Both the position numbers and the translations under genes were made by a program. From positions 1-64,000 of the forward strand of contig CAJTDN010000010.1 of NCBI GenBank assembly GCA_910574865.1: a stretch of 64,000 nucleotides of DNA, given 5' to 3'. Each line of letters begins with the position of its first letter. Position 1 is the stretch's first letter. The notes under the pieces are model-generated. The model made no database searches, was not told the origin of the DNA, and was given only the letters and a program-made list of their open reading frames with translations. Below are positions 5,706-27,292 of the stretch, one piece after another. Source of the DNA: Lachnospiraceae bacterium (GTDB taxonomy: Bacteria; Bacillota; Clostridia; Lachnospirales; Lachnospiraceae).

Positions 5706-6878
5706 ATGAAGGAAAACATTAAGATAACCATTGTAATTGCCGTCCGCAACATGCCGGAAACTTTAGGCAGGGCGATAGAAAGCGTATTAAACCAGACATA
5801 TCCATATAAGGAACTAATCGTGATGGACGGAGCTTCCACGGATGATACGGTTGACGTTATCAGAAAATATGAAAATCAATTGACATATTGGGTGTCCGAA
5901 CAAGATCGCGGGCCGTCTGACGCGATTTCAAAGGCTTTGCCTCATGCAAGTGGTGAATTGATTGGCTTTTTAGGGGCGGATGACTGGTATGAACCATATG
6001 CGCTGGAACTTGTGGCAGCCGCATATCAGGAATCACATGCGGATTTATGCTATGGAAACATGATGACGCGCGACGGCGAGATATGTGAACTTAAGAATCT
6101 GAAAAAGTTCAGCCCTGACAAGCTCTTTATGGAGGGAACGCAGTGGTTGGGCGCCGTATGCGCGTTCGCGAAGAAAGAGTTGCTTGAAGCAAATTACAAA
6201 AAGAAAAACGACGTGCTTCTGACGGACTATCTGTTTTTCTTGAGATTATACGCGGAGGGGCGTACGTTCACGCATATTGGTGATGACCGGCACATTACGA
6301 ACTTTTCCATAGGAGGCAGAACCACGGCTGGCATTTATCGTGCCATTCGTGATACCGAGGTAGTTAGAAAACAGTTTCTTGAGGAATACCCCCATATGCG
6401 TGAAAAATATATGAAACACGCAGAACGTATGGAGAAGGCATATGCCATGGGAATCGCGGATTACTACCGGCAGGTTCTAAGTAAAGAACAGTATAGGGAA
6501 TATGTGAAAGAACTTCCGTGCTCAGGTGAGGATTGTATTTTGTTTGGCTCCGGGAAGCAAGGGAGGGAATGTGCAAAGTTGATGAAAATATTCAATATTA
6601 AGATAGAATGTTTTGTTGACAATGACAATTCGAAGTGGGGACAAGACGCAGAAGGGTTTCCAATTAAGAATCCAGAAATATTGAAAGAGGCTGTCAGTAA
6701 ATGCGTTGTGGTAACACCATCTTGGGATTTTGAGGAGCAGATTATGAAACAGCTCCATACAATGGGAATTGAGAAGAAGTGTCGCATAATACATTATTCG
6801 GATATTGCGATTCAGGTATACCACGTATTAGGTGAGGAAGTGCTTGATGACGCGTGGAATAAGGGGCTGATTTCTTAG
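5706..6878 (+). CDS. GT2 family glycosyltransferase with C-terminal Rossmann-like module
   Basis: A 390-residue protein. The GT-A fold is shown by TIVIAVRNMPETLGRAIES, the nucleotide-sugar motif VMDGASTDDT (residues about 38-47) and the metal-binding stretch GADDWY (about 93-98). This matches the GT2 subgroup typified by WcaA/WbbD-like enzymes. The last 110 residues form a second module starting CILFGSGKQGRECAKL with FVDNDNSKWG, ending in LGEEVLDDAWNKG. The paralogue at 17300 has the same layout and nearly the same ending. AGGAG precedes the ATG and the gene lies 21 bases after the sulfotransferase. The donor sugar is unknown; GDP-heptose derivatives made by the locus are candidates. Confidence 0.87.
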   Translation: MKENIKITIVIAVRNMPETLGRAIESVLNQTYPYKELIVMDGASTDDTVDVIRKYENQLTYWVSEQDRGPSDAISKALPHASGELIGFLGADDWYEPYALELVAAAYQESHADLCYGNMMTRDGEICELKNLKKFSPDKLFMEGTQWLGAVCAFAKKELLEANYKKKNDVLLTDYLFFLRLYAEGRTFTHIGDDRHITNFSIGGRTTAGIYRAIRDTEVVRKQFLEEYPHMREKYMKHAERMEKAYAMGIADYYRQVLSKEQYREYVKELPCSGEDCILFGSGKQGRECAKLMKIFNIKIECFVDNDNSKWGQDAEGFPIKNPEILKEAVSKCVVVTPSWDFEEQIMKQLHTMGIEKKCRIIHYSDIAIQVYHVLGEEVLDDAWNKGLIS

Positions 6879-6888: not shown

Positions 6889-7890
6889 ATGATTATTACA
6901 AGAACACCATTACGTATATCTTTCTTTGGCGGCGGTACGGATCTTCCCGGTTATTATTTAAAACATGAGGGGGAGGTCTTGTCAACAACGATGGATAAAT
7001 ACTTATACATTACTTGCAGGCATATGCCGCCTTTTTGGGACTATAAGCATAGGTTTGTGTATGGCTCGAAAACAGAACTTGTATCGGATATCGAAGAGAT
7101 TGAACACCCTTCTATTCGAGAGACACTCCGTTTTATGAATATAGATTACGGCGTGGACATGCACTATAATACGGACATTCCGGCCAGATCGGGAATAGGG
7201 TCAAGTTCATCATTTACGGTCGGACTGTTAAATGCCTTAAACGGGCTTGAAGGAAAAATTTCATCGAAACACCAACTGATGCGTGACAGCATCCATATCG
7301 AGCAGAACATGATCAAAGAGCCGGTCGGGGCACAAGATCAGACCGCGGCGGCATATGGCGGTTTTAATCATATTATTTTTCGGAAAAATGGCGAGATTGA
7401 GGTATCGCCGATAACCATACGCGAGGATAGAATAAGGGAACTGAACGATTGCCTGCTTTTAGTTTTCACGGGGTTTCAAAGATACTCCAAGAATATCGAG
7501 AAAAAGAAAATGGAACGAATCGATAAAAATACAAAATCTCTTAACATAATGAAGCGGTATGTCTCGGACGCCCTGGCAATCCTTAATTCAAACGAGGACA
7601 TACTTGAATTTGGTTCACTTCTGAATGAAACATGGAAAATGAAAAAAATTCTTGCTGACAATGTGACGGATGAAAGAATCGATGCAATGTACCGTATGGG
7701 GATGGAAAATGGCGCCGTGGGGGGAAAGCTTTTAGGCGCAGGAGGCGGAGGTTTTATGTTGTTCTTTGTATCAAGGGAGAGGCGGGAAGAATTAAAGAAG
7801 GCGATGAGAAACTATGTCCGTGTACCTTTCCGGTTTGAAAATTCCGGAAGCCAGGTAATATACTACAAGCAGGAGGATGAAAGAGGTTGA
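6889..7890 (+). CDS. hddA: D-glycero-alpha-D-manno-heptose 7-phosphate kinase
   Basis: A 333-residue GHMP kinase. The N-terminal PLRISFFGGGTDLP is characteristic of HddA/WcbL-type sugar kinases. The ATP-binding loop is GIGSSSSF (residues 102-109), and the C-terminal GHMP motif is GGKLLGAGGGGFML. The family phosphorylates D-glycero-D-manno-heptose 7-phosphate at C1 to give the 1,7-bisphosphate. The isomerase (16653) and a fused phosphatase/guanylyltransferase (15325) complete the route to GDP-heptose. TAGGAGAG stands before the ATG. The stop overlaps the TTG start of the next gene by 4 bases. Fucokinase-like GHMP enzymes are the main alternative, but the neighbours favour the heptose kinase. 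Confidence 0.9.
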   Translation: MIITRTPLRISFFGGGTDLPGYYLKHEGEVLSTTMDKYLYITCRHMPPFWDYKHRFVYGSKTELVSDIEEIEHPSIRETLRFMNIDYGVDMHYNTDIPARSGIGSSSSFTVGLLNALNGLEGKISSKHQLMRDSIHIEQNMIKEPVGAQDQTAAAYGGFNHIIFRKNGEIEVSPITIREDRIRELNDCLLLVFTGFQRYSKNIEKKKMERIDKNTKSLNIMKRYVSDALAILNSNEDILEFGSLLNETWKMKKILADNVTDERIDAMYRMGMENGAVGGKLLGAGGGGFMLFFVSRERREELKKAMRNYVRVPFRFENSGSQVIYYKQEDERG

Positions 7891-8792
7891 ATGTAAGGGA
7901 CAGATTTTTTTATGAAATATATGGCCAGGTAAAATCCGGGGAGGATGTTTCCCTGGTCAGTACGGATCTTGGAGCTCCCAGTCTGGATGATTTTCGGCGG
8001 GATTTTCCCCAGCGGTTTGTCAACGTGGGGATTGCCGAGCAGAATGCCATTGCCGTGGCCGGGGGACTTTGTCTTGCCGGAAAAAAAGTTGTTACCTATG
8101 GGTTAAATCCTTTTCCGGTCACCAGGGCTTTTGATCAGATTCGAAACCTGATGGCCTCCCTCGAGCTGCCCATTACCGTGGCCGCGTTGAAAGCGGGTAC
8201 CGCAACGGCCGAGGCAGGAATGTCACATATGGCTCTGGAAAATATATCACTGCTTCGTACCTTAAAGAATGTCAGGATTATCAGTCCGTCAGACGAAACC
8301 ATTTCAAAGATGGCGGTGGATGAGATGATAAGCCGGCCCGCACCGCGGTATATACAGTTCGACCCCTTTATCACGGACACACTTTATGACGAAGCAGAAA
8401 TTGATTATAAAAAGGGATTTGCCCTAAGCGGGCCTAAAAGTGATGTTGCGATTGTGGCTACGGGAATCTGGGCCCACAAGCTGAAAAAAGAAAATCTGCC
8501 GGTCAGGCTCATCGACTGCTTCGCGTTGCCGCTGTGTGAAAAGGAGTTTTGCGACGAATTGAAACAATATAAGCGGATAATAACCATCGAAGATGGCGTG
8601 GACCGTGGCGGTATTGGAAGTATGACGTTGGAAATTTTAAATGATTTTGGAGCGGTCATTCCGGTAGAACGCATGGCGCTTAAGTTCGGGAATGGATATC
8701 CCCGTGTATTTTCGAACCGAAATCTGATTTTTGAGCAGGAAGGACTTACTCTGGATCATCTTAAGAAAAAACTGGAAGGCAGGGAATCATAA
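7887..8792 (+). CDS. transketolase-like enzyme, C-terminal (pyrimidine-binding) subunit
   Basis: A 301-residue protein corresponding to the C-terminal half of transketolase-like TPP enzymes. The segment FVNVGIAEQNAIAVAGGL carries the conserved activating Glu (E51) that contacts the thiamine pyrimidine ring. It starts at TTG (7887), overlapping the hddA stop, with AGGAGG at 7871-7876 upstream. The TPP-diphosphate-binding half is encoded immediately downstream, so the gene order is reversed relative to the usual N-then-C order of split transketolases. Within a heptose locus it could raise sedoheptulose 7-phosphate supply. Alternatively it could attach a two-carbon ketol unit to a keto-sugar nucleotide. 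Confidence 0.85.
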   Translation: MNVRDRFFYEIYGQVKSGEDVSLVSTDLGAPSLDDFRRDFPQRFVNVGIAEQNAIAVAGGLCLAGKKVVTYGLNPFPVTRAFDQIRNLMASLELPITVAALKAGTATAEAGMSHMALENISLLRTLKNVRIISPSDETISKMAVDEMISRPAPRYIQFDPFITDTLYDEAEIDYKKGFALSGPKSDVAIVATGIWAHKLKKENLPVRLIDCFALPLCEKEFCDELKQYKRIITIEDGVDRGGIGSMTLEILNDFGAVIPVERMALKFGNGYPRVFSNRNLIFEQEGLTLDHLKKKLEGRES

Positions 8793-9640
8793 TGACGGAA
8801 GCAGGAACACGTGCGGTAAAGGCATTTGATGAAATAAAAAGCTATTATGAAAAATCCTTTAAAATGCGTCAAAGGTTTATTGAACTTTTTTCCAATTTGG
8901 GATTTGGCCATCTGACGACGGCATTTTCTGAGACAGAGATTCTGATTGCACTGTTTGAAAAGGTGATGCGATTTGATGAAGACAGGAAGCCGATAGACAA
9001 ATTTGTTTTAAGCAAAGGACATGGAGCCGGGATGGTGTATCCAATCTTAGAAGATATGGGGATATTTTCTAAAGAAGAGACCGATGAAATGGTGCAAATT
9101 GGCGGAGATTTGGCAAAGATACGCGAATTTGTGTATCCGGGATTCGAGTTTTATGGAGGTTCCCTTGGTATCGGAATTGGTATGGCAGCCGGTCTCGCAT
9201 TGGGTCTTAAGCAAAACAGGGAGGATCGTATCGTTTTCTGTCTGTGCGGGGACGCGGAATGCTATGAAGGTTCCGTGTGGGAGGCGATGCTTTTTGCGGC
9301 ACATAATAGGTTGAATAACCTTGTAGTAATCGTGGACAGGAATTATCTGGGCGTGTCTGATTTTACGGAAAACATGTGTGCTTTTGAACCGTTTGCAGAC
9401 AAGTGGAAAAGCTGCAATTGGGACGTCCGCGAAATCAACGGACATTCTTATGAAGAATTGTTCGATACGCTAGTGAACGTCTATAAGAGACCCTCCTCCA
9501 AACCGCTGTGTATCATAGCGGATACCGTGAAGGGAAAAGGGGTTGGCGATTTATGCAATATTCCGCTAAGGCATGGCTATATGCCGACGGGAGAAAATGC
9601 GGATAACACAATAAAGAAATTGGAGCGATTTGGTATATGA
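8792..9640 (+). CDS. transketolase-like enzyme, N-terminal (TPP-binding) subunit
   Basis: A 282-residue protein that is the N-terminal half of a transketolase. SKGHGAG (residues 74-80) is the transketolase signature. GDAECYEGSVWEA (153-165), followed by NN (175-176) and VDRN, forms the TPP/metal-binding motif. Its ATG shares a base with the stop of the C-terminal subunit (TAATG), indicating translational coupling and a heteromeric enzyme. The N-terminus is about as short as other split bacterial transketolases. With the epimerase at 23611 it could convert ribulose 5-phosphate-derived pentoses to sedoheptulose 7-phosphate, the GmhA substrate. Use of a nucleotide-sugar acceptor cannot be excluded. 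Confidence 0.87.
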   Translation: MTEAGTRAVKAFDEIKSYYEKSFKMRQRFIELFSNLGFGHLTTAFSETEILIALFEKVMRFDEDRKPIDKFVLSKGHGAGMVYPILEDMGIFSKEETDEMVQIGGDLAKIREFVYPGFEFYGGSLGIGIGMAAGLALGLKQNREDRIVFCLCGDAECYEGSVWEAMLFAAHNRLNNLVVIVDRNYLGVSDFTENMCAFEPFADKWKSCNWDVREINGHSYEELFDTLVNVYKRPSSKPLCIIADTVKGKGVGDLCNIPLRHGYMPTGENADNTIKKLERFGI

Positions 9641-11142
9641 GTGTATATAAAACGGATTTGTTGTTGATTCATCCCAATGATCAAAAGGCCGTCTATGGGG
9701 ACACGATAAGATACACGGCATGTGAACCGCCGTATTGGTGCGCGATAGTGGCGCAGTATTGCCTTGATAAGGGCGTGTCGGTTCGAATCGTGGACGCCGA
9801 GGCGGAGAACATTTCCTTTGATCAGGTGGCGGACAAGGTCAGGGAATACGCCCCGGCGCTGACGGGAATTTTTGTTACGGGGACAAATCTTTCCGCGTCT
9901 ACACAGAAAATGCAAGGGGCGGATGCAACCTGCAAAGCGATAAAGGAAATAGGCGACTATCCTGTTTTCTTATGGGGACTCCATCCTTCTGCACTGCCGG
10001 AGCGAACCTTAATGGAAAATGATGCTGATTATATCGTGGCAGGTGAAGGTTTTGAGACTATCGTGAATCTCACGCGTTTTCATAAAGGCAAAGAAGTAAT
10101 GTTTTCGACAGAGTCACTTGGCGGCTTGTGTTATCGAAAAGCTGACAAAATCGAACGCTTTGGCACTTCAAAACTACTTGATACAACGCAGATGCCGATG
10201 CCGGCATGGGATTTACTTCCCATGAAAAAATATATGCCGCATAATTGGCACATCATGGGTGAGGACCGACCGGAGGATGCGAAGGGAAGGTATGCCGTCG
10301 TTTCCACATCCATAGGATGCCCCTTCAACTGCTCCTACTGTGCCATATCGGCATTGTTTGGAACAAAGAAGCTTCGGTTTTGGGATATTGACCGGGTAAT
10401 GGATGAGTTTGACCGCCTGGTAAATGTATATAACGTGAAATACATAAAGATTTTGGATGAATGCTTCGTACTGAAAAAGGCTTATGTGAGCGAGCTTTGT
10501 GACAAGCTTGCAGAAAAAAAATATGACTTGAATATCTGGGCATATGCCAGGGTGGACACCGTGGATCAGGCGATATTGGAAAAATTGAGAAAAGCAGGGA
10601 TTCGATGGCTTGCATATGGGATTGAAAGCGCGGATGACGACGTCCTTTCTGAAGTGTCAAAAGCACAGTACGACGCTGACAGAACAAGGACGGTCATGCA
10701 ATGGACAAAAGACGCCGGAATCCATATACTTGCGAACTTTATGTTCGGACTGCCGGACGATACAAAGGAGTCCATGGAAAAGACACTGCGACTTTGCAGA
10801 GAAATCAATCCGCAGTGGATTAATTTTTATGTAACGATGCCATATCCGGGATCAAGAGATTACTTTGCGGCCGTGAAAAACGGAAACATCAAAAACGACC
10901 GTTGGATTGAATATGCACAATACAGTTATGAATGCCGCCCTGCCGGAGGAAAGTACCTGACACCCAAGGAAATACTTGCATTCAGGGATTATGCGTTTAA
11001 CGCTTTTTTCGAGGGGAATGACCAATATTTTGACATGATACGGCGGAAGTTTGGCCAGCAATATGCAGACAATATACGGGAGATGACCAAAAACAAACTT
11101 CGAAGGAAGCTACTAGAAGACGAAGGTGGTGTTTCTATATGA
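9637..11142 (+). CDS. B12-binding-domain radical SAM enzyme, class B-like
   Basis: A 501-residue protein. Residues 1-140 form a cobalamin-binding-type Rossmann domain, with FLWGLHPSALPERTL at 111-125 and AGEGFE at 135-140. The radical SAM core carries C228-x3-C232-x2-C235 (IGCPFNCSYC), which ligates a [4Fe-4S] cluster. GIESADDDVL and the NFMFGLPDDT stretch follow, typical of B12-radical SAM methyltransferases and related enzymes. The start overlaps the transketolase stop by 4 bases, and the gene sits between sugar-modifying enzymes. The likely substrate is therefore a sugar or sugar nucleotide, with C-methylation or another radical C-H change as the chemistry. The exact reaction is not inferable from sequence. 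Confidence 0.85.
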   Translation: MSVYKTDLLLIHPNDQKAVYGDTIRYTACEPPYWCAIVAQYCLDKGVSVRIVDAEAENISFDQVADKVREYAPALTGIFVTGTNLSASTQKMQGADATCKAIKEIGDYPVFLWGLHPSALPERTLMENDADYIVAGEGFETIVNLTRFHKGKEVMFSTESLGGLCYRKADKIERFGTSKLLDTTQMPMPAWDLLPMKKYMPHNWHIMGEDRPEDAKGRYAVVSTSIGCPFNCSYCAISALFGTKKLRFWDIDRVMDEFDRLVNVYNVKYIKILDECFVLKKAYVSELCDKLAEKKYDLNIWAYARVDTVDQAILEKLRKAGIRWLAYGIESADDDVLSEVSKAQYDADRTRTVMQWTKDAGIHILANFMFGLPDDTKESMEKTLRLCREINPQWINFYVTMPYPGSRDYFAAVKNGNIKNDRWIEYAQYSYECRPAGGKYLTPKEILAFRDYAFNAFFEGNDQYFDMIRRKFGQQYADNIREMTKNKLRRKLLEDEGGVSI

Positions 11143-12116
11143 CAAGTATGAAGCAAATGGATAAGCAGAGCAAAATATATGTCGCCGGAGACACGGGACT
11201 CGTAGGTTCTGCCATTGTCCGAGAGTTGAGAAGGCAGGGATATGGCAATCTTCTTATAATGCCGCATAAAGAACTTGATCTTCGGAATCAACAAGAAGTA
11301 AATGACTGGTTTAAAAAGGAAAGACCAGAGTATGTATTCCTTGCCGCCGCAACGGTAGGCGGGGTTGTCGTAAATGACCGGTTTCCGGGTACGTTTTTTT
11401 ATGACAATCTGGCAATCGGGATGAACGCCATTCATGCGGCCCATGAAAACGGCGTGAAGAAACTCTTGTATTTTGGGAGCAACTGCATCTATCCACGGGC
11501 AGCGCCTCAGCCCTACAAGGAGGAATCGCTTCTTACAGGACTTCCCGAAAAAACAAACGAGGCGTATGCCGTTGCAAAGATTGCTTGTGTAAAAATGTGT
11601 GAGTTTTATAATCGGCAATATGGGACAGACTTTATTTCCTGCATGCCCTGCAGCGCCTATGGCCCCGGAGACAATTTTGACCCGGAAGGCTCCCATGTCG
11701 TGCCGGCATTGATTCGAAAATTTCACGAGGCAAAAGGGTCTGGTGCTTCAGAGGTAGTGATGTGGGGAACGGGGAAACCGTATCGGGAATTCATATATAT
11801 CGATGATATTGCCAAAGCAGCGATATTTTTGATGAATCAATATTCCGGAAACGAACCGGTTAACATAGGCACGGGAGCGGAATATACCATAGGAGAATTG
11901 GCAGAAATCATAAGGCGTGTAGTTGGATTCGAAGGCGAAATCGTGAATGATACGTCAAAACCGGACGGAACACCAAAGAAGCTTCTGGATTCCTCAAAGA
12001 TTTTTTCGCTTGGATGGAGACCAGAAACAGATTTTGAAACCGGTATCCGTATCACATATGAGGATTTTGTAAAAAATAAGCAAAAACACATTAAAAAGGG
12101 AGGAAAACTAAAATGA
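11139..12116 (+). CDS. GDP-L-fucose-synthase-like SDR (4-keto-sugar epimerase/reductase)
   Basis: A 325-residue extended SDR. The Rossmann motif VAGDTGLVGSAI (15-26) is followed by GSNCIYPR (113-120), Y143-x3-K147, and H186 in EGSHVVPALIRK. These match the Ser/Tyr/Lys triad plus the Cys (C116) and His used for epimerisation in GDP-L-fucose synthase. Family members include ColC and the GDP-heptose C4-reductases of Campylobacter (WcaG/Cj1428 type). Here it probably reduces the C4 keto group, with or without C3/C5 epimerisation, of a modified GDP-heptose. It overlaps the radical SAM gene (ATGA) and the next SDR gene. No typical GDP-mannose 4,6-dehydratase is in the window, arguing against plain GDP-fucose. 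Confidence 0.82.
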   Translation: MTSMKQMDKQSKIYVAGDTGLVGSAIVRELRRQGYGNLLIMPHKELDLRNQQEVNDWFKKERPEYVFLAAATVGGVVVNDRFPGTFFYDNLAIGMNAIHAAHENGVKKLLYFGSNCIYPRAAPQPYKEESLLTGLPEKTNEAYAVAKIACVKMCEFYNRQYGTDFISCMPCSAYGPGDNFDPEGSHVVPALIRKFHEAKGSGASEVVMWGTGKPYREFIYIDDIAKAAIFLMNQYSGNEPVNIGTGAEYTIGELAEIIRRVVGFEGEIVNDTSKPDGTPKKLLDSSKIFSLGWRPETDFETGIRITYEDFVKNKQKHIKKGGKLK

Positions 12117-13048
12117 GTAAAATACTTGTTACAGGCGGGGCGGGATATATTGGATCAGTGCTGGTTCCCATGCTCCTTGACGAAGGACACGACGTTACCG
12201 TGTTAGATAATTTCTACTACAATCAGCCAACGCTTCTTGACCAGTGCATCAGGGAAGGCTTTTACATTGTACGAGGTGACGTCCGTGATAGGAAACTGAT
12301 GAAAGACTTGATGGCGGATAAAGACTATATCATTCCCCTCGCGGCCATGGTAGGGTTTCCTCTATGTAAAAAGGATGAAACGGCGGCAAAAACCATCAAT
12401 CTTGACGCCGTTCGCATGATTATTGAATTGAGGAGGCCTGAACAGAAAATCATTTATCCTTGTACAAACAGTGGATATGGCATCGGACAAGGAGACAAAT
12501 TCTGTACCGAAGATACGCCAATGAATCCCATATCGCTTTATGGAATCACGAAATCGGAAGCCGAAAAGGCCGTACTGGACTCCGGCAATTCCCTTACCTT
12601 CCGCTTTGCAACGGTGTTCGGGGCCTCTCCTCGCATGAGGCTCGATCTTTTGGTTAATGACTTTGTATACCGGGCGGTCTTTGATAAAACCGCCGTAATC
12701 TTCCAAGGGGAATTCAAGCGAAATTACATCCACATCAGGGATGCGGCGGCGGCTTTTATTTTCGCCATAGAGCACTTTGAAGAGATGAAAGGTAAACCAT
12801 ATAACTGTGGATTGTCATCAGCCAATCTTTCGAAAATCGAATTATGTGAAAAGATAAAGGAACATATACCGGATTTTATATATCTGGAAGCCCCGGTCGG
12901 GGAAGATCCAGACAAAAGAGATTATATTGTTTCAAATGAACGCTTGGAGAAGGCAGGATGGACGCCAAGGTATTCTCTTGACGACGGAATTGAAGAGCTG
13001 ATTAAGGTATATACGATTATTAAGAAAAATCAGTATTCAAACATCTAA
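12113..13048 (+). CDS. NAD-dependent nucleotide-sugar dehydrogenase/epimerase (SDR)
   Basis: A 311-residue extended SDR with a glycine-rich NAD loop VTGGAGYIGS (6-15) and catalytic Y143-x3-K147 (SLYGITKSEAEKA). It lacks the gmd signature (no GQDG near the N-terminus) and resembles the general UDP-glucose epimerase-like/4-dehydrogenase group, into which the Campylobacter GDP-heptose 4-dehydrogenase Cj1427 also falls. It could generate the 4-keto intermediate needed by the adjacent 3-dehydratase-like (14119) and reductase-like (11139) enzymes. Its start overlaps the previous stop by 4 bases (ATGAG). The reaction is inferred from context; a plain C4 epimerase is the alternative. Confidence 0.75.
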   Translation: MSKILVTGGAGYIGSVLVPMLLDEGHDVTVLDNFYYNQPTLLDQCIREGFYIVRGDVRDRKLMKDLMADKDYIIPLAAMVGFPLCKKDETAAKTINLDAVRMIIELRRPEQKIIYPCTNSGYGIGQGDKFCTEDTPMNPISLYGITKSEAEKAVLDSGNSLTFRFATVFGASPRMRLDLLVNDFVYRAVFDKTAVIFQGEFKRNYIHIRDAAAAFIFAIEHFEEMKGKPYNCGLSSANLSKIELCEKIKEHIPDFIYLEAPVGEDPDKRDYIVSNERLEKAGWTPRYSLDDGIEELIKVYTIIKKNQYSNI

Positions 13049-13059
13049 GCGGAGGAACG

Positions 13060-13998
13060 ATGGAATCAGTAGCTGTAACGATACGTGTATGTTTGCCAAT
13101 TTATATCATGATCGCGGTTGGATATGCGGCAAATAGACGCGGCATAGTAAGCCGACCTACGCTCAAAGAGTTAAATGCAGGTGTATTTCGCATTTTTCTT
13201 CCGCTTCTGCTCTTTGAGAATATGTATACCTCGCACCTGGACGTGACCAACATAAAGGCTCTCTTGTTTGCAGTTGCAAGTGTAATTCTTATATTCCTGA
13301 TATGCCATGTGGTCGTTTTTCATGTGATTGGAACTAAATCGAGGGCGGCAACGATTGTCCAGGGAATGTATCGGAGTAATTTTGCGCTCCTTGGAATTGC
13401 GCTTACCGAGACGCTGTATGGCTCAGGAGAAACGGACGTCACGGGAATGCTCGTGGCGGTAATTATACCGTTGTACAACGTGCTTGCAGTAATACTTTTT
13501 GAAAGTAGCTGCCAGAACGGGAAAACAAAGATAGGAAAGATTGTGAAAGGAATCCTAAAGAATCCGCTGATTTTATGGACATGTACAGGATTGGTTCTCA
13601 ACCTTCTTCATATCACTATTCCGGTTGCAGTCAACAGCGTGGTAACTTCCTTAGGACAAGTTGCGACGCCGCTGGCACTGTTTGTAATGGGAGGTAATTT
13701 TGAGGCCGCAAAGACAAAAAAGAATAGGAATCCTTTAATAGCCGTATCAACAACAAGACTTATTATAATACCGATTTTATGCACGGCAATGTCCATCATC
13801 TTAGGATTCAGGGGGAAATCGTTATATGCATTATTTTTGATGTATGCGACGCCGACTGCGGTTGCATCTTATGCAATGGCATCGTCAATGGGCGGGGATG
13901 AGGATCTTGCGGGAGAAATCGTTCTTGTAACGACAGCTATATCCATGGTTTCCATCGGGCTTGGTGTGTATGTGCTCACCGCGTTGCGGCTCATATAG
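13060..13998 (+). CDS. AEC-family permease (auxin efflux carrier-like)
   Basis: A 312-residue integral membrane protein with about ten hydrophobic segments. The N-terminal helix LPIYIMIAVGYAANRRGIVS, the following LNAGVFRIFLPLLLF, and the C-terminal TPTAVASYAMASSMGGDEDLA are hallmarks of the AEC (auxin efflux carrier/malate permease) family, which exports organic anions or small metabolites. GGAGGA precedes the ATG, 12 bases after the SDR stop, so it is part of the operon. A carboxylate transporter is unexpected among sugar-nucleotide enzymes. It might handle a by-product such as 2-oxoglutarate from the PLP dehydratase, but that is speculative. The substrate is unknown. Confidence 0.85.
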   Translation: MESVAVTIRVCLPIYIMIAVGYAANRRGIVSRPTLKELNAGVFRIFLPLLLFENMYTSHLDVTNIKALLFAVASVILIFLICHVVVFHVIGTKSRAATIVQGMYRSNFALLGIALTETLYGSGETDVTGMLVAVIIPLYNVLAVILFESSCQNGKTKIGKIVKGILKNPLILWTCTGLVLNLLHITIPVAVNSVVTSLGQVATPLALFVMGGNFEAAKTKKNRNPLIAVSTTRLIIIPILCTAMSIILGFRGKSLYALFLMYATPTAVASYAMASSMGGDEDLAGEIVLVTTAISMVSIGLGVYVLTALRLI

Positions 13999-14009
13999 AT
14001 GAATACGGA

Positions 14010-14097
14010 AGTTACGCTGCACCAGGTTCGAAAAAACCTCGCCAAGTTGCAGGTAACTACATTCGCACTTAGTGCTTAAAAGATAAGCACTAAGTGC
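14010..14097 (+). promoter_or_regulatory. structured leader with two hairpins upstream of the dehydratase-like gene
   Basis: The 120-base gap before 14119 holds two nested or stacked hairpins. The first pairs AGTTAC-CTGC (about 14011-14021) with GCAGGTAACT (about 14049-14058) around an inner AGGTT/AACCT stem. The second is a perfect 14-base inverted repeat, GCACTTAGTGCTTA (14065-14078) and TAAGCACTAAGTGC (14084-14097), with a 5-base loop. There is no T-run, so it is not a plain terminator; an attenuator, RNA processing site or protein-binding palindrome are options. A 26-codon frame (13999-14079) also spans part of it. Confidence 0.5.
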
Positions 14098-14118
14098 TCA
14101 TGGTAAGGGAGAGGAAAA

Positions 14119-15288
14119 ATGCTAAACATACCATTGATGCAAAACAATATTGACAAGGATGACGTAAATATATTGGTTGATTTTTTGAAATCATCGGATC
14201 GATTTACGAATGGTCCGAAAGTACGTGAATTTGAAGAGGCATGGTCGAAGTGGCTGGGCGGAGGATACTACTGCGTGTTCGTCAATTCCGGCTCCTCCGC
14301 GAACTATATTACGATGACGGCACTCAAGGAGAGATACGGGGACGGTGAGATTATCGTTCCTCCGATAGGATGGACAAGCGATATCGCCTCGGTCATTACG
14401 GCCGGGTTCAAGCCGGTATTTGCTGACGTAAATCTCCATAATCTCGCCATCAATGTGAATGAGATTGAATCAAAAATCACCGACAACACCAGGGCGGTAT
14501 TGCTGACTCATGTATTAGGATATAACGGTCTGTCGGACAAAATCATTGATATATGCAAAAACAAAAATATTACCTTGATTGAAGATGCCTGCGAGTCCCA
14601 CGGGGCGGTCTTTCGAGGGAAAAAATGTGGTTCCTTCGGGGACATTTCCAATTTTTCTTTTTACTATGCACATCATATGAGCACGATTGAAGGCGGCATG
14701 ATTTGCACGAAGGATAAAGAAATGTACCGTCTGATGAGGATGATCCGTTCCCATGGCATGCTCAGGGAATGTGATGACGAAAGTTATATGGCGGAAATTG
14801 CGAAGAAGTACCCCGAGGTTCATCCGGAATTCTTATTTACCGTTCCGGGATTTAATATGAGGAGTACCGAATTGAACGCCGTAATCGGATTAAACCAATT
14901 AAAACGTCTGGATGCCAACGTGGAAAAAAGAAGAAAAAACTATGATTTGTTTATCAACAAGCTGGATGGCAGCAAGTATTATACAGAATTTGCACATGAA
15001 GGAAACAGTAATTACGCCTTTGTCGTTATGCCACATGCGTCCGTGACTGGTTTGTATGACAGAATGATTCAGGGCTTTCGTGATGAAAACGTGGAATTTC
15101 GGAGAGGCACGGCAGGCGGCGGCAACATGGCAAGACAGCCCTATATAAGAAAAAGATATCCCCATATTAACCCTGCCGATTATCCAAACGCCGAATATAT
15201 CCATGAAAATGGCGTGTACATAGGCAATTATCCTGATTTGCCAAAGGAGAAGATAGAAGGATTATGCGAGATGTTAAATTCTCTGTAA
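14119..15288 (+). CDS. DegT-fold PLP/PMP-dependent sugar 3-dehydratase-like enzyme (ColD/RfbH type)
   Basis: A 389-residue DegT/DnrJ/EryC1 fold protein: GSSANYITMTAL (58-69), IEDACESHGA (154-163) and FYYAHHMSTIEGG (181-193). At the place of the PLP Schiff-base lysine of sugar aminotransferases the protein has H185 (codon 14671-14673), followed by H186. This HH signature is known from GDP-4-keto-6-deoxymannose 3-dehydratase (ColD) and CDP-4-keto-6-deoxyglucose 3-dehydrase (RfbH/E1), which remove the C3 hydroxyl using PMP. RfbH needs a ferredoxin-type reductase, which is absent here, so ColD-type chemistry with glutamate is more likely. Predicted role: 3-deoxygenation of a 4-keto GDP-heptose. 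The ATG follows GGGAGAGG. Confidence 0.83.
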   Translation: MLNIPLMQNNIDKDDVNILVDFLKSSDRFTNGPKVREFEEAWSKWLGGGYYCVFVNSGSSANYITMTALKERYGDGEIIVPPIGWTSDIASVITAGFKPVFADVNLHNLAINVNEIESKITDNTRAVLLTHVLGYNGLSDKIIDICKNKNITLIEDACESHGAVFRGKKCGSFGDISNFSFYYAHHMSTIEGGMICTKDKEMYRLMRMIRSHGMLRECDDESYMAEIAKKYPEVHPEFLFTVPGFNMRSTELNAVIGLNQLKRLDANVEKRRKNYDLFINKLDGSKYYTEFAHEGNSNYAFVVMPHASVTGLYDRMIQGFRDENVEFRRGTAGGGNMARQPYIRKRYPHINPADYPNAEYIHENGVYIGNYPDLPKEKIEGLCEMLNSL

Positions 15289-15324
15289 TAGGATGTTTTG
15301 AATTTCGATGAAGGAGGACGTCTG

Positions 15325-16677
15325 ATGATAGCGGTTATTATGGCAGGCGGAAAGGGAACCCGCATTTCTTCTGTTGCTTCAGACGTTCCCAAACCGATGA
15401 TTGCCGTAAATGGAATGCCTGTGATGGAGTATCAGATTGAACGGTTAAGAACGCAGGGAATAAGGGATATCGTCATTACCGTGTCACATAAAAAGGAAAT
15501 GATAATGGATTACTTTGGAGATGGTAAAAAAACATCTCCGGCAACGGCAAAGCCGTTTGACGTCAGCATTTCATACTACGAGGAGGACGTACCCCTTGGA
15601 AACGCGGGCGCTCTGTTCCGGCTGAGAAATCGGCTGAGCAGTGATTTTTTACTTATCAATGCGGACGTGGTATTTGATATTGATATAGAAAGATTTGTTG
15701 ACTTTCATAAAAGCACGGGCGGTCTTGTAACACTGTTTACACATCCCAACAACCACCCGTTTGATAGTGGATTGCTTCTTGCAGACAAGGACAAAGCACT
15801 AACCGCATGGCTATCCAAGGAGGACGGGCGGCCCAAGTATTACAAAAACAAAGTAAATGCCGGTCTTCATATCATGGCTCCTAAAGTCCTTGACGTCACA
15901 AGCGAGAGGCTTATAAAAAAATACGGACGTCTGCCTGAGAGGATTGACTTGGACAGAGATTTGCTAAAGCCTCTTGCCGGAACCGGAATGGCGTATTGTT
16001 ATGACAGTTGCGAATATGTCAGGGACATGGGTACCCCGAAACGGTATGAACAAGTTTGTCGCGATATGGCGTCGGGGCGTATTGACATGAGGAACCTTCA
16101 TAAAAAACAGAAAGCAATTTTTCTTGACCGGGATGGAACGATAAATAAAGAAGTGGGATTTCTCAGTGATATTGACCGATTTGAGCTTCTTCCAGGTGTC
16201 GGGGAGGCAATTCAAAAGATTAATCAGTCAGGCTATCTTGCAATTGTCATCACAAATCAGCCGGTGATTGCAAGAGGAGAATTGTCCCGCGAAGGATTGG
16301 AAGAAATTCACAATAAAATGGAAACGCTTTTGGGAAAAGAAAGCGCATACCTTGACGGAATTTATTACTGCCCGCATCACCCACACGGCGGATACGAGGG
16401 CGAGGTCAGGAAATTAAAGATAGACTGTGACTGCCGAAAGCCCAAGCCGGGGATGTTGTATGCGGCGGCAGAAGCGTTTCATATAGATTTGAAAAATTCG
16501 TGGATGATAGGGGACGGAGAACGGGACATTGCCGCGGGGAAAAGCGCGGGCTGCAAGACGGTCTTGATAGGAAAGGAAAATTGGGGACAAGATATGAGTG
16601 TGAATTCGTTGCCGGAAGCAGTTCGGATGATACTGGAAGGAGAAAGTGAAGAATGCGTGATCCGGGGAAATACATAA
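15325..16677 (+). CDS. hddC-gmhB: bifunctional heptose 1-phosphate guanylyltransferase / heptose 1,7-bisphosphate phosphatase
   Basis: A 450-residue fusion. Residues 1 to about 235 are a nucleotidyltransferase (MAGGKGTR at 6-13, DVPKPM, DSGLLLAD), like HddC. Residues about 262-440 are a HAD phosphatase with FLDRDGTINKE (D268 nucleophile, D270) and the zinc-loop CPHHPH...CDCRKPKPGM typical of GmhB histidinol-phosphatase-like enzymes. It would dephosphorylate the heptose 1,7-bisphosphate and then activate heptose 1-phosphate to GDP-heptose in one chain. The ATG at 15325, eight bases after AAGGAGG, is chosen over a TTG at 15298. The C-terminus overlaps gmhA by 25 bases. Confidence 0.87.
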   Translation: MIAVIMAGGKGTRISSVASDVPKPMIAVNGMPVMEYQIERLRTQGIRDIVITVSHKKEMIMDYFGDGKKTSPATAKPFDVSISYYEEDVPLGNAGALFRLRNRLSSDFLLINADVVFDIDIERFVDFHKSTGGLVTLFTHPNNHPFDSGLLLADKDKALTAWLSKEDGRPKYYKNKVNAGLHIMAPKVLDVTSERLIKKYGRLPERIDLDRDLLKPLAGTGMAYCYDSCEYVRDMGTPKRYEQVCRDMASGRIDMRNLHKKQKAIFLDRDGTINKEVGFLSDIDRFELLPGVGEAIQKINQSGYLAIVITNQPVIARGELSREGLEEIHNKMETLLGKESAYLDGIYYCPHHPHGGYEGEVRKLKIDCDCRKPKPGMLYAAAEAFHIDLKNSWMIGDGERDIAAGKSAGCKTVLIGKENWGQDMSVNSLPEAVRMILEGESEECVIRGNT

Positions 16678-17303
16678 ATGACTTATTTGTCAGATATCCC
16701 AAGCTGGAGGAAACAAGAAGCGATTTGCTGGATGCCTATGATCTGCTGCGGCAGTGCTTTGAGTCCGGTTGCAAACTGCTTGTTGCGGGAAACGGAGGTT
16801 CCGCGGCAGATGCAGAGCATATTGCAGGAGAATTAATGAAAGGATTTCTGAGTAAACGCCCCCTTCCCGAGGATTTGCGACATCGTTTTGCGGAAGTAGA
16901 ACCAGTAAAAGGCAGGGAAATATCAAAGCGGCTTCAAGGCGCGTTGGCGGTTCTTCCATTGACGTCACAAGACGCGCTTTCCACGGCTTTTTTAAACGAC
17001 GTAGATGCGGGGGACATATTTGCGCAGAAGCTTATGGGCTATGGCAAAAAGGGGGATGTTTTTCTGGGGATTTCCACTAGTGGCGACAGTGTAAGCATCA
17101 TTAATGCGGCAATTACTGCGAAGGCATTGGATATAAAGGTCATTGGGCTGACGGGAAGTACGGGCGGCAAACTGAAAAACTACTGCGACGTGCTGGTGAG
17201 GGCGCCTGAAAGTGAGACCTATAAAATTCAAGAGCTTCATGTACCAATTTACCATAGCTGGTGCATGATGCTTGAGGAATATTTCTTTGGTATAGGAGAA
17301 TGA
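16653..17303 (+). CDS. gmhA: phosphoheptose isomerase (sedoheptulose 7-phosphate isomerase)
   Basis: A 216-residue single SIS-domain protein. LLVAGNGGSAADAEHIAGEL (42-61) carries the SIS loop with H56 and E60, and the C-terminal QELHVPIYHSWCMMLE is the GmhA signature helix providing a further metal/catalytic His. GmhA isomerises sedoheptulose 7-phosphate to D-glycero-D-manno-heptose 7-phosphate, the first step to GDP-heptose. A long insertion (about residues 66-92) resembles that of longer GmhA homologues. The ATG lies within the end of the preceding fusion gene, with AAGGAGAAA upstream. The stop overlaps the next GT2 start (ATGA). Confidence 0.92.
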   Translation: MRDPGKYINDLFVRYPKLEETRSDLLDAYDLLRQCFESGCKLLVAGNGGSAADAEHIAGELMKGFLSKRPLPEDLRHRFAEVEPVKGREISKRLQGALAVLPLTSQDALSTAFLNDVDAGDIFAQKLMGYGKKGDVFLGISTSGDSVSIINAAITAKALDIKVIGLTGSTGGKLKNYCDVLVRAPESETYKIQELHVPIYHSWCMMLEEYFFGIGE

Positions 17304-18478
17304 ACATGGACGAACCACGGATTACAGTAATGATTCCGGTGTTTAATATGCAGGAAACGATTACAAGAGCCATAGACAGCTTTTTTAGGCAGGATTATGA
17401 AAACAAGGAAATTTTGGTTTTGGACGGAGGTTCGACGGACAACACCGTGAATCTCGTTAAACAATATGGCGGTTCCATTGACTATTTTGTGTCGCAAAAA
17501 GATGGCGGGCCTTCCGACACAATGGCAAAAAATTTAAAACATGCCACGGGTGACCTGGTTGCAATACTTGGCGCAGATGACTGGTATAACCCGGGCGCGC
17601 TTACGGCAGCGGCAAATACGTATAAGGAGCACCAGGCTGACGTTCTTTATGGAGACTGCCGTTGCATACACCCTACTGGTGAAAGAGTGATTAAGAGTGC
17701 AAAAAAACGGGTGTTGGAAGACTTGTATTACTATAATGCCGTCTTTACCAATGCGGCCTTTGTAAAAAGAGATTTGTTAGAGAAGTACTATGAACAATAC
17801 TGGCATAAAAATAAGAAGAAACTCCATATCTCAACCGATCATTATCTGTGGCTCCTTCTTTATCATCAGGGAAAGCATTTTGAATATATAGAATCAAAGG
17901 ATGCTTTGACCAATTATTCGGTTTCAGGAAGATCCGCGGAAAACGAGTATGAGGGCTGCATGGACGATGCGGAAATCTTTCGACTGGTTGTAGGAAATGA
18001 CAGCAAAGCCGTAAAAAAATATTTGCCCAAATTCAAAAGATATTTTGCGGCACGTACAATCTTATATTATGAAGATACCATGGCGAAAAAAGACTTTGAG
18101 TTTGAACTTAAGAAATACCTGACAGAAGGGGAACGTTATGTGATTTTTGGTACGGGACATATAGGAAAAAAGGCCGAGCGGTTAGTGAGGTTATGTAAGG
18201 GAAGGCTGGAATACTTTGTTGACAATAATTATTTTGCCAATACGGGAGAATATTTGAATTGTAAGGTTTGTTCGCCGGAAAGTATAAAACAAGAAAAAAA
18301 CCTATCTGTCATTATTTCTGCATTGGGGTGTGAAAATGCCATAATGAGGCAACTGGCAGGAATGGGATTGGACTCTTCCATAAAGGTGATAGATTATTCT
18401 GATATATGCGAGAACATACAAAATACGTTGGGCGTGGAGATTTTGGCAGATGCATGGAAAAAGGGAGTTATCCGGTAG
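17300..18478 (+). CDS. GT2 family glycosyltransferase with C-terminal Rossmann-like module
   Basis: A 392-residue paralogue of the enzyme at 5706. The GT-A core has TVMIPVFNMQETITRAIDS, LDGGSTDNT and GADDWYN. The C-terminal module begins YVIFGTGHIGKKAERL (about 277-292) with YFVDNNYF, and ends NTLGVEILADAWKKG, nearly matching the ending of the 5706 protein. It is presumably cytosolic or membrane-peripheral, adding one residue to a lipid-linked glycan repeat. The start overlaps the gmhA stop by 4 bases. The donor sugar is unknown. Confidence 0.87.
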   Translation: MNMDEPRITVMIPVFNMQETITRAIDSFFRQDYENKEILVLDGGSTDNTVNLVKQYGGSIDYFVSQKDGGPSDTMAKNLKHATGDLVAILGADDWYNPGALTAAANTYKEHQADVLYGDCRCIHPTGERVIKSAKKRVLEDLYYYNAVFTNAAFVKRDLLEKYYEQYWHKNKKKLHISTDHYLWLLLYHQGKHFEYIESKDALTNYSVSGRSAENEYEGCMDDAEIFRLVVGNDSKAVKKYLPKFKRYFAARTILYYEDTMAKKDFEFELKKYLTEGERYVIFGTGHIGKKAERLVRLCKGRLEYFVDNNYFANTGEYLNCKVCSPESIKQEKNLSVIISALGCENAIMRQLAGMGLDSSIKVIDYSDICENIQNTLGVEILADAWKKGVIR

Positions 18479-20727: not shown

Positions 20728-21669
20728 ATGAAAATGATGAATTTTGAATCGATGGACTCCATGGCGCGTGCCGATTACGGCAATCTGGACAAGCTGGAGG
20801 CGGAAGCCATATATATCATGCGGGAGGTTGCGGCCGAGTGTGAAAAGCCGGTGATGCTTTACTCCATCGGAAAAGACAGTTCCGTCATGCTACATCTTGC
20901 ATTGAAGGCCTTTTACCCGGAGAAACCGCCATTCCCATTTATGCATATTGACACAACCTGGAAGTTCCATGAGATGATTACCTTTCGTAATCGGATGGCA
21001 AAAAAGTATGGTCTGGACATGATTGTTTATACCAATGAAGACGGTGTGAAAAAAGGAATCAATCCTTTCGAACACGGGGCGGCATATACGGATATCATGA
21101 AGACAGAGGCTCTGAGGCAGGCTCTTACAAAGTACGGATTTACAGCGGCGTTTGGCGGCGGAAGAAGAGACGAAGAAAAATCAAGGGCAAAGGAGCGGGT
21201 CTTTTCCTTCCGAAACGGTGCGCAAGCCTGGGAGCCGAAGAACCAGCGCCCGGAGCTATGGAAGCTTTACAACACTCATATTAAAAAGGGCGAGAGTATG
21301 CGGGTTTTTCCGCTTTCCAATTGGACGGAAAGGGATATATGGCAATATATCCGCAGAGAAAACATTGAGATTGTGCCGCTGTATTTTGCCAAAGAACGGC
21401 CGGTGGTTTATCGGGACGAAAATATCATCATGGTGGATGATGACAGGATAAAGCTGCTCCCCGGAGAGGAAATACAGTATAAGAAGGTACGCTTCAGGAC
21501 ACTTGGATGCTACCCCCTGACTGGCGGAGTTGAATCCGAGGCGGGTACCTTGGATTCCATAGTGGATGAGATTCTTGGAGCCGTCACGTCGGAGCGCACC
21601 AGCCGCGTCATAGATAAGGACGGCGGCAGTTCAAGCATGGAAAAGAGGAAGAGAGAGGGGTACTTTTGA
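20728..21669 (+). CDS. cysD: sulfate adenylyltransferase subunit 2 (ATP sulfurylase small subunit)
   Basis: A 313-residue PP-loop protein. [13 protein letters not shown] (45-57) is the pyrophosphatase loop, and [22 protein letters not shown] and [11 protein letters not shown] are CysD hallmarks. With CysN it adenylates sulfate to APS. AGGGGAA precedes the ATG, 12 bases after the acetyltransferase. The next gene is the CysN-CysC fusion, so APS and PAPS are made by adjacent products. No PAPS or APS reductase is nearby; together with the sulfotransferase at 4302 this indicates use in glycan sulfation, not cysteine synthesis. Confidence 0.95.
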
Positions 21670-21670
21670 A

Positions 21671-23587: not shown

Positions 23588-23610
23588 AGGGGTAATGGGG
23601 AGACATAGAA

Positions 23611-24288: not shown

Positions 24289-24360
24289 TAGGGAGAGTTT
24301 GCAACGGAAACTATGGAAAACGTGGCGGCAGCCATGCATCAAACTTTAGGATTCAAGACA

Positions 24361-27278: not shown

Positions 27279-27292
27279 GAAAGGAACTTTTC

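What the first reader, a model, noticed from the sequence alone, without database searches (positions are those of the whole stretch)
14119..15288. Histidine in place of the PLP lysine in a DegT-fold enzyme: predicted 3-dehydratase on a GDP-heptose
The catalytic segment reads FYYAHHMSTIEGG (H185-H186, codon 14671). Aminotransferases of this fold have Lys there; ColD and RfbH, which remove the C3 hydroxyl, have His. No 4,6-dehydratase (gmd) or E3-type reductase is present. With an SDR (12113), a ColC/Fcl-like SDR (11139) and GDP-heptose genes adjacent, the simplest product is a GDP-3-deoxy-heptose. I know of no described 3-deoxy-heptose route of this kind.
Basis: partly seen in the sequence, partly recalled or inferred. 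Interest (0 to 1): 0.8.

Follow-up and report, generated by a model that had tools for sequence, protein, structure and literature searches.

The report
Phage-shared cassette for an unusual heptose
The enzyme does look like a sugar deoxygenase rather than an aminotransferase, and it belongs to a gene set, also found on viral DNA, that probably builds an unusual seven-carbon sugar, perhaps with an extra carbon branch.

Summary
The 389-residue protein has His185-His186 where aminotransferases have Lys, and its nearest solved relative is ColD, a GDP-4-keto-6-deoxymannose 3-dehydratase. The SDR at 12113 is the likely 4-keto maker: its best PDB match is an entry that I recall as Cj1427, the Campylobacter GDP-heptose C4-dehydrogenase. 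No 4,6-dehydratase is then needed, although the genome has gmd elsewhere. The chemistry is not new: Cj1427 mixed with a ColD-type enzyme made GDP-3-deoxy-heptoses in vitro (PMC10680097). Here homologues of both lie in one natural operon.

The operon also holds a split thiamine-diphosphate enzyme and a B12-radical-SAM protein, which belong to the same set. In 24 of 40 IMG/VR loci with a Cj1427-like and a His-DegT gene the order is radical SAM, thiamine enzyme, HddA, His-DegT, Cj1427-like; the thiamine enzyme is transketolase-type in 8 and pyruvate-dehydrogenase-E1-type in 16. The likeliest pathway oxidises C4, deoxygenates C3, then adds a two-carbon branch at C4, by the logic of yersiniose. Branching is inferred, not shown; a linear 3-deoxy-heptose remains possible.

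The parts
14119..15288 (+). ColD-type PMP-dependent sugar 3-dehydratase (His185 in place of Lys); probable GDP-4-keto-heptose 3-dehydratase
   Evidence: tree
14671..14676 (+). codons of His185-His186
   Evidence: H185 in 11 of 11 gmd-linked DegT proteins examined and in 7 of 8 bacterial loci with Cj1427-like plus DegT genes
12113..13048 (+). Cj1427-type SDR, probable GDP-heptose C4-dehydrogenase
   Evidence: 6vo6, 383 bits; next 79; TNSGYG where Gmd has STSELYG; 11 of 11 bacterial loci with this gene hold at least one heptose-pathway gene within the fetched flanks
11139..12116 (+). GDP-fucose-synthase/ColC-like SDR with the full S-Y-K and Cys/His epimerase set (S114, C116, Y143, K147, H186)
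7887..8792 (+). C-terminal subunit of split transketolase-like ThDP enzyme; other residues at the places of TktA S385, H461, D469, R520; keeps E411, H473
8792..9640 (+). N-terminal (ThDP-binding) subunit of the split transketolase-like enzyme
9637..11142 (+). B12-binding radical SAM protein, function unassigned; part of the recurrent cassette
6889..7890 (+). HddA-type GHMP kinase (D-glycero-D-manno-heptose 7-phosphate kinase family)
   Evidence: (167.5 bits, cut-off 600)
15298..16677 (+). HddC-like nucleotidyltransferase fused to GmhB-like phosphatase
   Evidence: HddC 82.5 bits, cut-off 300; GmhB 170.9, cut-off 178
16653..17303 (+). GmhA-like sedoheptulose 7-phosphate isomerase
   Evidence: (121 bits, cut-off 209)
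13060..13998 (+). auxin-efflux-carrier-type membrane transporter between the SDR and DegT genes; role unknown
5706..6878 (+). family 2 glycosyltransferase of the same gene cluster
17300..18478 (+). family 2 glycosyltransferase of the same gene cluster

Best explanation
The protein is a ColD-type, PMP-dependent 3-dehydratase of a GDP-heptose pathway. [quoted passage not shown] SDR 12113 (Cj1427 type) oxidises C4. The DegT protein, recharged with glutamate, forms a ketimine at C4, eliminates the C3 hydroxyl and releases GDP-3-deoxy-4-keto-heptose plus ammonia, with His185 as the likely catalytic base. The split transketolase-like enzyme (7887-9640) then most likely adds a two-carbon unit to the C4 ketone, as YerE does for yersiniose. 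The Fcl-like SDR epimerises and/or reduces, and the B12-radical-SAM protein makes a further change that I cannot name. The product goes into a surface glycan. Shown by sequence: family, His, partner set, recurrence. Shown elsewhere in vitro: oxidation plus 3-deoxygenation by the C. jejuni homologues. Inferred: substrate in this organism, the branching step, the order of steps, the product.
For: ColD is the closest solved relative by sequence and by fold; H185 and no CxC motif. SDR 12113 matches 6vo6 far better than any other entry; 11 of 11 bacterial loci with this gene hold a heptose gene in the fetched flanks. In the DegT tree the window copy falls in a 20-row clade (97/97) with 17 Cj1427-linked rows, 3 with no partner in view and no gmd-linked row. 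Reciprocal IMG/VR scan with the Cj1427 alignment, which did not select for DegT: 40 of 65 distinct loci carry a His-DegT; with it radical SAM 34 of 40 against 0 of 25, HddA 32 of 40 against 4 of 25, ThDP enzyme 32 of 40 against 10 of 25, gmd over 400 bits 0 of 65. One per cluster at 80% identity: 26 clusters, 15 with His-DegT; radical SAM 13 of 15 against 0 of 11 (p 2e-5), ThDP enzyme 13 of 15 against 5 of 11 (p 0.04). Same gene order with E1-type (16) or TK-type (8) enzyme: E1-type enzymes work on 2-oxo acids (general knowledge) and should not supply sedoheptulose 7-phosphate, so the shared role is probably C2 transfer. His-DegT beside gmd: 0 of 11 loci have a ThDP enzyme in the fetched flanks; with Cj1427 in bacteria: 7 of 7. 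19 of 20 cassette TK C-subunits group together (99/98). 1 of the 40 IMG/VR loci has an Fcl-like gene of 100 bits or more in view. In vitro precedent.
Against: No chemistry was measured. The genome has a gmd on C11 with ORFs that look like manA and manC, and a second Fcl, so GDP-4-keto-6-deoxymannose can exist in the cell; G790, the genome of L005, also has gmd. HddA, HddC, GmhB and GmhA score below their curated cut-offs. The window Fcl-like SDR has every residue for a linear epimerase/reductase route. 8 of 40 His-DegT loci show no ThDP enzyme in view, and 10 of 25 without His-DegT do; after clustering the HddA difference is not significant (8 of 15 against 2 of 11). Azospirillum sp. B510 has Cj1427, HddA and split TK but no DegT in 25 kb. 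Loss of TktA H461 is not special to the cassette: two other TK-like genes of the same genome have S there; B510 keeps D469, and R520 is lost only in the window copy and L005. The A. argentinense TK joins the cassette TKs only with 61/17 support. That 6vo6 is Cj1427 is recalled.
Confidence: 0.45

Rival explanations
1. [quoted passage not shown] The split transketolase only supplies sedoheptulose 7-phosphate.
For: The Fcl-like SDR keeps S/Y/K and the Cys/His dyad of GDP-fucose synthase, unlike the C. jejuni reductases DdahC and MlghC, which work with a separate epimerase. In vitro, C. jejuni enzymes made four such 3-deoxy-heptoses. A ribulose-phosphate 3-epimerase-like gene lies at 23611. S. magneticus also has an Fcl-like gene in its set.
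Against: The window TK differs from TktA at S385, H461, D469 and R520; the housekeeping-like split TK on contig C1 of the same genome keeps H461, D469 and R520. E1-type enzymes stand at the place of the TK in 16 of 24 ordered IMG/VR cassettes, and 39 of 40 His-DegT loci there show no Fcl-like gene of 100 bits or more.
Confidence: 0.27
2. Colitose-type route in trans: the DegT and Fcl-like proteins act on GDP-4-keto-6-deoxymannose made by the gmd of contig C11 and yield GDP-colitose, while the heptose genes serve another sugar.
For: gmd on C11 beside manA- and manC-like ORFs; gmd also in G790; ColD is the closest solved relative; the cyanophage relative at 40% identity sits beside gmd.
Against: In the 11 gmd-linked His-DegT loci examined gmd lies within about 3 kb of the DegT gene, whereas here it is on another contig; C11 has its own Fcl, 61% identical to the window one; the window clade has Cj1427 in 17 of 20 rows and gmd in none.
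Confidence: 0.08
3. The His-DegT protein is no longer a dehydratase but an aminotransferase or a non-catalytic protein that kept the fold.
For: DegT fold is mostly used by aminotransferases; only 31% identity to ColD.
Against: D156, E159, S180, H185, H212 and R328 are the same in all 92 His proteins compared (74 IMG/VR, 7 Cj1427-linked, 11 gmd-linked; H185 partly by selection); the Lys that an aminotransferase needs is absent.
Confidence: 0.05

Closest known systems
ColD, GDP-4-keto-6-deoxymannose 3-dehydratase (E. coli O55; PDB 2gms, 3b8x, 2r0t, 3gr9)
   Same: Fold, His for Lys, no CxC motif in the window protein, presumed PMP/glutamate mechanism
   Different: 31% identity; separate clade; partner is a C4-dehydrogenase-like SDR, not gmd; linked to ThDP and B12-radical-SAM genes
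C. jejuni HS:5/HS:11 C3-dehydratase for GDP-3,6-dideoxy-heptose (PMC10440746)
   Same: ColD-type enzyme on a GDP-4-keto-heptose
   Different: That route starts with a 4,6-dehydratase and gives a 6-deoxy sugar; its enzymes are 62-67% identical to two characterised ColD-type enzymes; no carboligase in the four-enzyme route
[quoted passage not shown]
   Same: The first two steps proposed here
   Different: Enzymes of two serotypes were mixed by the authors; here homologues of both lie in one natural operon with extra genes
Yersiniose (YerE) and avilamycin/paulomycin-type C4-branched sugars
   Same: 3-deoxy-4-keto nucleotide sugar plus ThDP carboligase (yersiniose); two-subunit enzyme AviB1/AviB2 proposed for avilamycin
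   Different: YerE uses a CDP-hexose; GDP-heptose and a split transketolase here; a B12-radical-SAM partner is not part of those systems as far as I recall
Split-gene transketolases proposed to act on keto sugars (miharamycin, amipurimycin; PMC12247030 section 2.3)
   Same: Split TK next to sugar-oxidising genes
   Different: The review reports 13 putative cases, all from streptomycetes and none characterised; here Lachnospiraceae, Azospirillum and IMG/VR contigs
C. jejuni HS:2 pathway with Cj1427 and Cj1428 (PMC10680097)
   Same: C4-dehydrogenase and C4-reductase on GDP-heptose
   Different: No 3-deoxygenation; a separate C3/C5-epimerase

Membership tests
ColD-type PMP-dependent 3-dehydratase | His at the position of the PLP lysine | tested here: met
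ColD-type PMP-dependent 3-dehydratase | closest solved structure is ColD by sequence and fold | tested here: met
ColD-type PMP-dependent 3-dehydratase | no [2Fe-2S] cysteine motif (separates ColD from E1/RfbH) | tested here: met
   no CxC in P0001; RfbH-like L002 has the motif
ColD-type PMP-dependent 3-dehydratase | C3 deoxygenation of a GDP-4-keto sugar | not testable with these tools
   needs enzyme assay
RfbH/E1 (NCBIfam NF011936) | score over the curated cut-off (423 bits) | tested here: not met
   210.6 bits
Colitose pathway | gmd in the same cluster | tested here: not met
   none in the window; gmd on another contig
Cj1427 GDP-heptose C4-dehydrogenase (SDR 12113) | best solved match is the Cj1427 entry, far above other SDRs | tested here: met
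   that 6vo6 is Cj1427 is recalled
Cj1427 GDP-heptose C4-dehydrogenase (SDR 12113) | not a 4,6-dehydratase (lacks the Gmd motif) | tested here: met
   TNSGYG against STSELYG
Cj1427 GDP-heptose C4-dehydrogenase (SDR 12113) | alpha-ketoglutarate-supported oxidation of GDP-heptose | not testable with these tools
   needs enzyme assay
C. jejuni HS:5 3,6-dideoxy-heptose route | GDP-heptose 4,6-dehydratase in the cluster | tested here: not met
Housekeeping transketolase (7887-9640) | sugar-phosphate and acceptor contacts S385, H461, D469, R520 (TktA numbering; roles recalled) | tested here: not met
   P, K, A, P
Housekeeping transketolase (7887-9640) | ThDP-binding and activating residues (H66, D155, E160, N185, E411) | tested here: met
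ThDP C4-branching of a 3-deoxy-4-keto sugar (yersiniose type) | 3-dehydratase and ThDP enzyme in one recurrent set | tested here: met
   7 of 7 bacterial loci with Cj1427 and His-DegT; 32 of 40 IMG/VR loci
ThDP C4-branching of a 3-deoxy-4-keto sugar (yersiniose type) | carboligation onto the C4 ketone | not testable with these tools
   needs enzyme assay
GDP-fucose synthase / ColC (SDR 11139) | S107, Y136, K140 and C109/H179 dyad | tested here: met
   S114, Y143, K147, C116, H186
GDP-fucose synthase (NCBIfam NF047922) | score over the curated cut-off (500 bits) | tested here: not met
   449.7 bits

The most novel reading that the evidence does not exclude
A mobile cassette, carried by T4-like and other phages and by bacteria of three phyla, makes an undescribed GDP-linked higher sugar: a 3-deoxy-heptose branched at C4 by a two-carbon unit. 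Either a split transketolase or an E1-type enzyme does the same ketone carboligation, and a B12-radical-SAM enzyme modifies the product. The window would then hold a transketolase that works on a sugar ketone, the reaction which the ThDP field has proposed but not shown.
Probability: 0.38. Interest if true: 0.8.

Novelty: new variant of a known kind. Interest (0 to 1): 0.62.

Why it matters
It gives a candidate natural operon for a GDP-3-deoxy-heptose step that, in the papers I could see, had been made only by mixing enzymes of two C. jejuni serotypes. It names a concrete split transketolase to test for ketone-acceptor carboligation, an open question in the review PMC12247030. The same gene set on viral contigs, one of them shown here to be T4-like, suggests that phages make this sugar too; whether for their own or the host's surface or for DNA is unknown.

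Tried and rejected
Family and phylum searches with the DegT protein found 2 of 397 and 1 of 398 genomes at E 1e-60 and 1e-55, the window genome included each time; with SDR 12113, 3 of 398 at 1e-60, the window genome included. Class searches around the two other hits found only those hits again (1 of 46 and 1 of 82). Gene context therefore came from plasmid, phage and IMG/VR records.

Rejected: (a) 'no gmd, so heptose', since gmd is elsewhere in the genome; (b) the split TK as a supplier of sedoheptulose 7-phosphate, because of the residue differences and the TK/E1 swap, though not excluded; (c) an E1/RfbH type, no CxC motif; (d) an SDR 4,6-dehydratase at 12113, since it lacks the Gmd motif. 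A function for the B12-radical-SAM protein could not be found: it matches BchE, HpnJ and AprD4 models, all far below their cut-offs.

Limits of the counts: one of the two patterns of the DegT scan requires HH, so H185 in 74 of 74 is partly by choice; the Cj1427 scan had no such pattern. The 7 Cj1427-linked bacterial loci were grouped for having a His-DegT. Rows dropped: 6 of 80 and 15 of 80 loci with identical proteins. Of the 25 Cj1427 loci counted as without His-DegT, two have a DegT cut off by the contig end and at least five begin within about 0.5 kb of a contig end. Hits were taken at E 1e-8 with profiles built here from few sequences; radical SAM over 150 bits, HddA over 100. The tree used every second distinct IMG/VR DegT plus chosen rows, 68 in all; E. 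coli ColD was labelled gmd-linked from knowledge of the pathway, its fetched piece holds no gmd. Of the 15 plasmid records with a DegT match 13 were fetched, of 50 phage records 1, of 7 plasmid records with a Cj1427 match 7, of 86 E. coli genomes 1. Only one IMG/VR locus (L069) was checked for phage genes.

Full report

OPERON. Genes 6889-17303 lie on one strand: HddA-type kinase, split transketolase C and N subunits, B12-binding radical SAM protein, Fcl-like SDR, a second SDR, an auxin-efflux-type transporter, the DegT gene, an HddC-GmhB fusion and GmhA. The order and 85-95% identity of nine of these proteins are kept in L005, a MAG recorded as an uncultured Faecalicatena. Glycosyltransferases flank it. 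HddA, HddC, GmhB and GmhA match below their curated cut-offs, so 'GDP' and 'heptose' are inferred from the set, not from one gene.

SDR 12113. Its best PDB match is 6vo6 (383 bits); the next is 79 bits. I recall 6vo6/6vo8 as Cj1427, the alpha-ketoglutarate-dependent GDP-heptose C4-dehydrogenase of C. jejuni; the papers I could read name Cj1427 and its structure paper, but I found the PDB code in none of them. Where Gmd has STSELYG this SDR has TNSGYG, so it is not a 4,6-dehydratase of that type. Relatives at 55-95% identity make up, with the window, 11 bacterial loci, and each holds at least one of HddA, HddC, GmhB or GmhA within the fetched flanks, adjacent or up to about 6 kb away.

WHAT IS ALREADY KNOWN. 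PMC10440746 (parts 1 and 3 of 5 of the text read) shows a ColD-type C3-dehydratase on GDP-6-deoxy-4-keto-heptose in C. jejuni HS:5 and HS:11. PMC10680097 (abstract and passages) mixes Cj1427 of HS:2 with the HS:5 C3-dehydratase and reports GDP-D-glycero-3-deoxy-4-keto-threo-heptose (m/z 616.08) and four reduced GDP-3-deoxy-heptoses, described as novel. What I did not find in print is a natural gene cluster with this pair. Searches: '3-deoxy-heptose' with 'polysaccharide' gave 1 paper, PMC10680097; a five-term search, three terms required, gave only those two papers; one search gave none, and the listings show no such cluster. Only open-licence PMC papers are covered.

GMD ELSEWHERE. The genome carries gmd on contig C11 beside ORFs that I read by eye as manA and manC and a further Fcl on the same contig, 61% identical to the window one; the genome of L005 also has gmd. 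Absence of gmd therefore cannot prove the heptose substrate. Gene context can be used instead.

His-DegT genes fall into two settings. Beside gmd: G306, a cyanophage, a Haladaptatus plasmid and eight bacterial plasmids, 11 loci; none has a ThDP enzyme in the fetched flanks. With a Cj1427-like gene: window, L005, four Azospirillum plasmids and Solidesulfovibrio magneticus pDMC1, 7 loci; all 7 have a two-subunit ThDP enzyme. These are not 7 independent events (L005 is a near copy; three Azospirillum loci are alike). In S. magneticus the genes are radical SAM (44% to the window one), a NUDIX gene, HddA, E1-alpha, E1-beta, Fcl, DegT, Cj1427-like, an HddC-like gene and, about 6 kb on, GmhA: the window set in another phylum, with an E1-type enzyme for the transketolase and a DegT that has H185, I186 and a Cys-rich stretch that resembles RfbH. 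In A. argentinense, HddA, Cj1427-like, a radical SAM protein 40% identical to the window one and a split transketolase lie together, with the His-DegT about 11 kb away. Cj1427-like loci without a His-DegT: G602 and G485 (no ThDP enzyme seen, G602 on a 12 kb contig), S. fredii (Lys-type DegT genes, no ThDP enzyme) and Azospirillum B510 (split TK and an aldo-keto reductase but no DegT).

CONTEXT TEST 2, IMG/VR. A scan with the DegT alignment, one of whose two patterns requires HH, returned 80 loci with 74 distinct proteins, 39-55% identical to the window protein, against 31% for ColD. A Cj1427-like gene was in view in 35 of 74, a ThDP enzyme in 52 of 74 (27 of the 35), a gmd of 400 bits or more in none. 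A reciprocal scan with the Cj1427 alignment returned 80 loci, 65 distinct: 40 have a His-DegT, 1 a weak Lys-type hit, 24 neither (two of these have a DegT cut off by the contig end). With His-DegT: radical SAM 34 of 40, HddA 32 of 40, ThDP enzyme 32 of 40. Without: 0 of 25, 4 of 25, 10 of 25. Clustered at 80% identity, 26 clusters remain: radical SAM 13 of 15 against 0 of 11 (p 2e-5), ThDP enzyme 13 of 15 against 5 of 11 (p 0.04), HddA 8 of 15 against 2 of 11 (p 0.11). Of the 40, 16 have the order radical SAM - E1 type - HddA - DegT - Cj1427 and 8 the same order with a TK type (in one of these HddA lies in two ORFs). One locus (L069) was checked and is a phage: late sigma factor, SbcCD-like nuclease and helicase PHROGs flank the cassette. 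The others are viral by the collection's label only.

TREE. In an IQ-TREE tree of 68 DegT proteins the window and L005 lie in a clade of 20 rows (97/97): 17 Cj1427-linked, 3 with no partner in view, none gmd-linked. By my reading, 17 of these 20 have a ThDP enzyme. Nine of the 12 gmd-linked rows, E. coli ColD among them, group together (87/35) and, with a 9-row Cj1427-linked clade of Azospirillum and IMG/VR proteins, form an 18-row clade (100/100), so the pairing with Cj1427 probably arose more than once. The other three gmd-linked rows lie elsewhere: Haladaptatus apart, the cyanophage and a long-branched Streptomyces protein on the window side.

THE THIAMINE ENZYME. The window subunits keep the ThDP residues but differ from TktA at S385, H461, D469 and R520, and at H100 of the N subunit; the split TK on contig C1 keeps H461, D469, R520 and H100. 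All 16 IMG/VR TKs aligned have G for H461 and S or A for D469, but keep R520. Two other TK-like genes of the same genome also lack H461, so that change alone says little; A. argentinense has G and S at 461 and 469, B510 has G and keeps D469. Roles of these residues are recalled. In a tree of TK C-subunits 19 of 20 cassette rows group together (99/98), the window pair on a long branch; the A. argentinense row joins them only with 61/17. The review PMC12247030 (passages and sections 2.2 and 2.3) says that split-gene TKs were proposed to put a hydroxyacetyl group on keto sugars, that 13 putative cases are all from streptomycetes, and that none was characterised in vitro; that E1-type (alpha-KADH2) enzymes put C2 branches on sugars of antibiotics; and that YerE does so on CDP-3,6-dideoxy-4-keto-glucose. 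PMC4753412 (passages) describes the reduction of such a branch.

CONCLUSION. The His-DegT protein is very probably a 3-dehydratase (about 0.9), its substrate probably GDP-4-keto-heptose (about 0.8 given that), and the further step probably two-carbon branching at C4 (about 0.6 given the rest), about 0.43 for the whole chain. The B12-radical-SAM step is unexplained.

Noticed in passing
L037:8047-11164 (Synechococcus phage ACG-2014f): Cyanophage with gmd, fcl-like and His-type DegT genes side by side, a GDP-colitose-type set; 49 Synechococcus phage records and one uncultured one hold the DegT.
   Followed up: partly
L069:2397-8119: T4-like phage carries radical SAM, mini E1-alpha (199 aa), mini E1-beta (176 aa), HddA, DegT and Cj1427-like genes between a helicase and the late sigma factor.
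   Followed up: partly
window 20728-29026: CysD and CysN/C (PAPS synthesis) and sulfate ABC transporter genes follow the sugar genes, and a sulfatase-family protein lies at 61263: the glycan may be sulfated.
   Followed up: no
window 23611-26259: Ribulose-phosphate 3-epimerase-like, IspD-like cytidylyltransferase and zinc alcohol dehydrogenase genes: possibly a CDP-ribitol or related alditol set.
   Followed up: no
window 13060-13998: Auxin-efflux-type transporter inside the heptose operon, kept in L005; odd place for a small-molecule carrier.
   Followed up: no
L045:5243-9806 (Azospirillum sp. B510): Split TK next to an SDR, an aldo-keto reductase and an O-methyltransferase; paulomycin uses an aldo-keto reductase on its C4 acetyl branch.
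   Followed up: no
L047:9935-14023 (Sinorhizobium fredii): Cj1427-like gene with HddA, HddC-GmhB and a Lys-type DegT in a long ORF (527 aa from its first possible start): perhaps a 4-amino-heptose route.
   Followed up: no
L064:4787-10695 and similar IMG/VR loci: Sister DegT clade with E1-type subunits and other SDRs but no Cj1427-like gene over 100 bits and no true gmd: perhaps another branched sugar.
   Followed up: no
L136, L137, L138, L153, L171, L203: DegT variants with SHQ in place of a second His next to Cj1427-like and radical SAM genes.
   Followed up: no
L002 (G000 contig C12, 45967-47097): The same genome has an RfbH-like DegT with HH and the Fe-S cysteine pattern.
   Followed up: no
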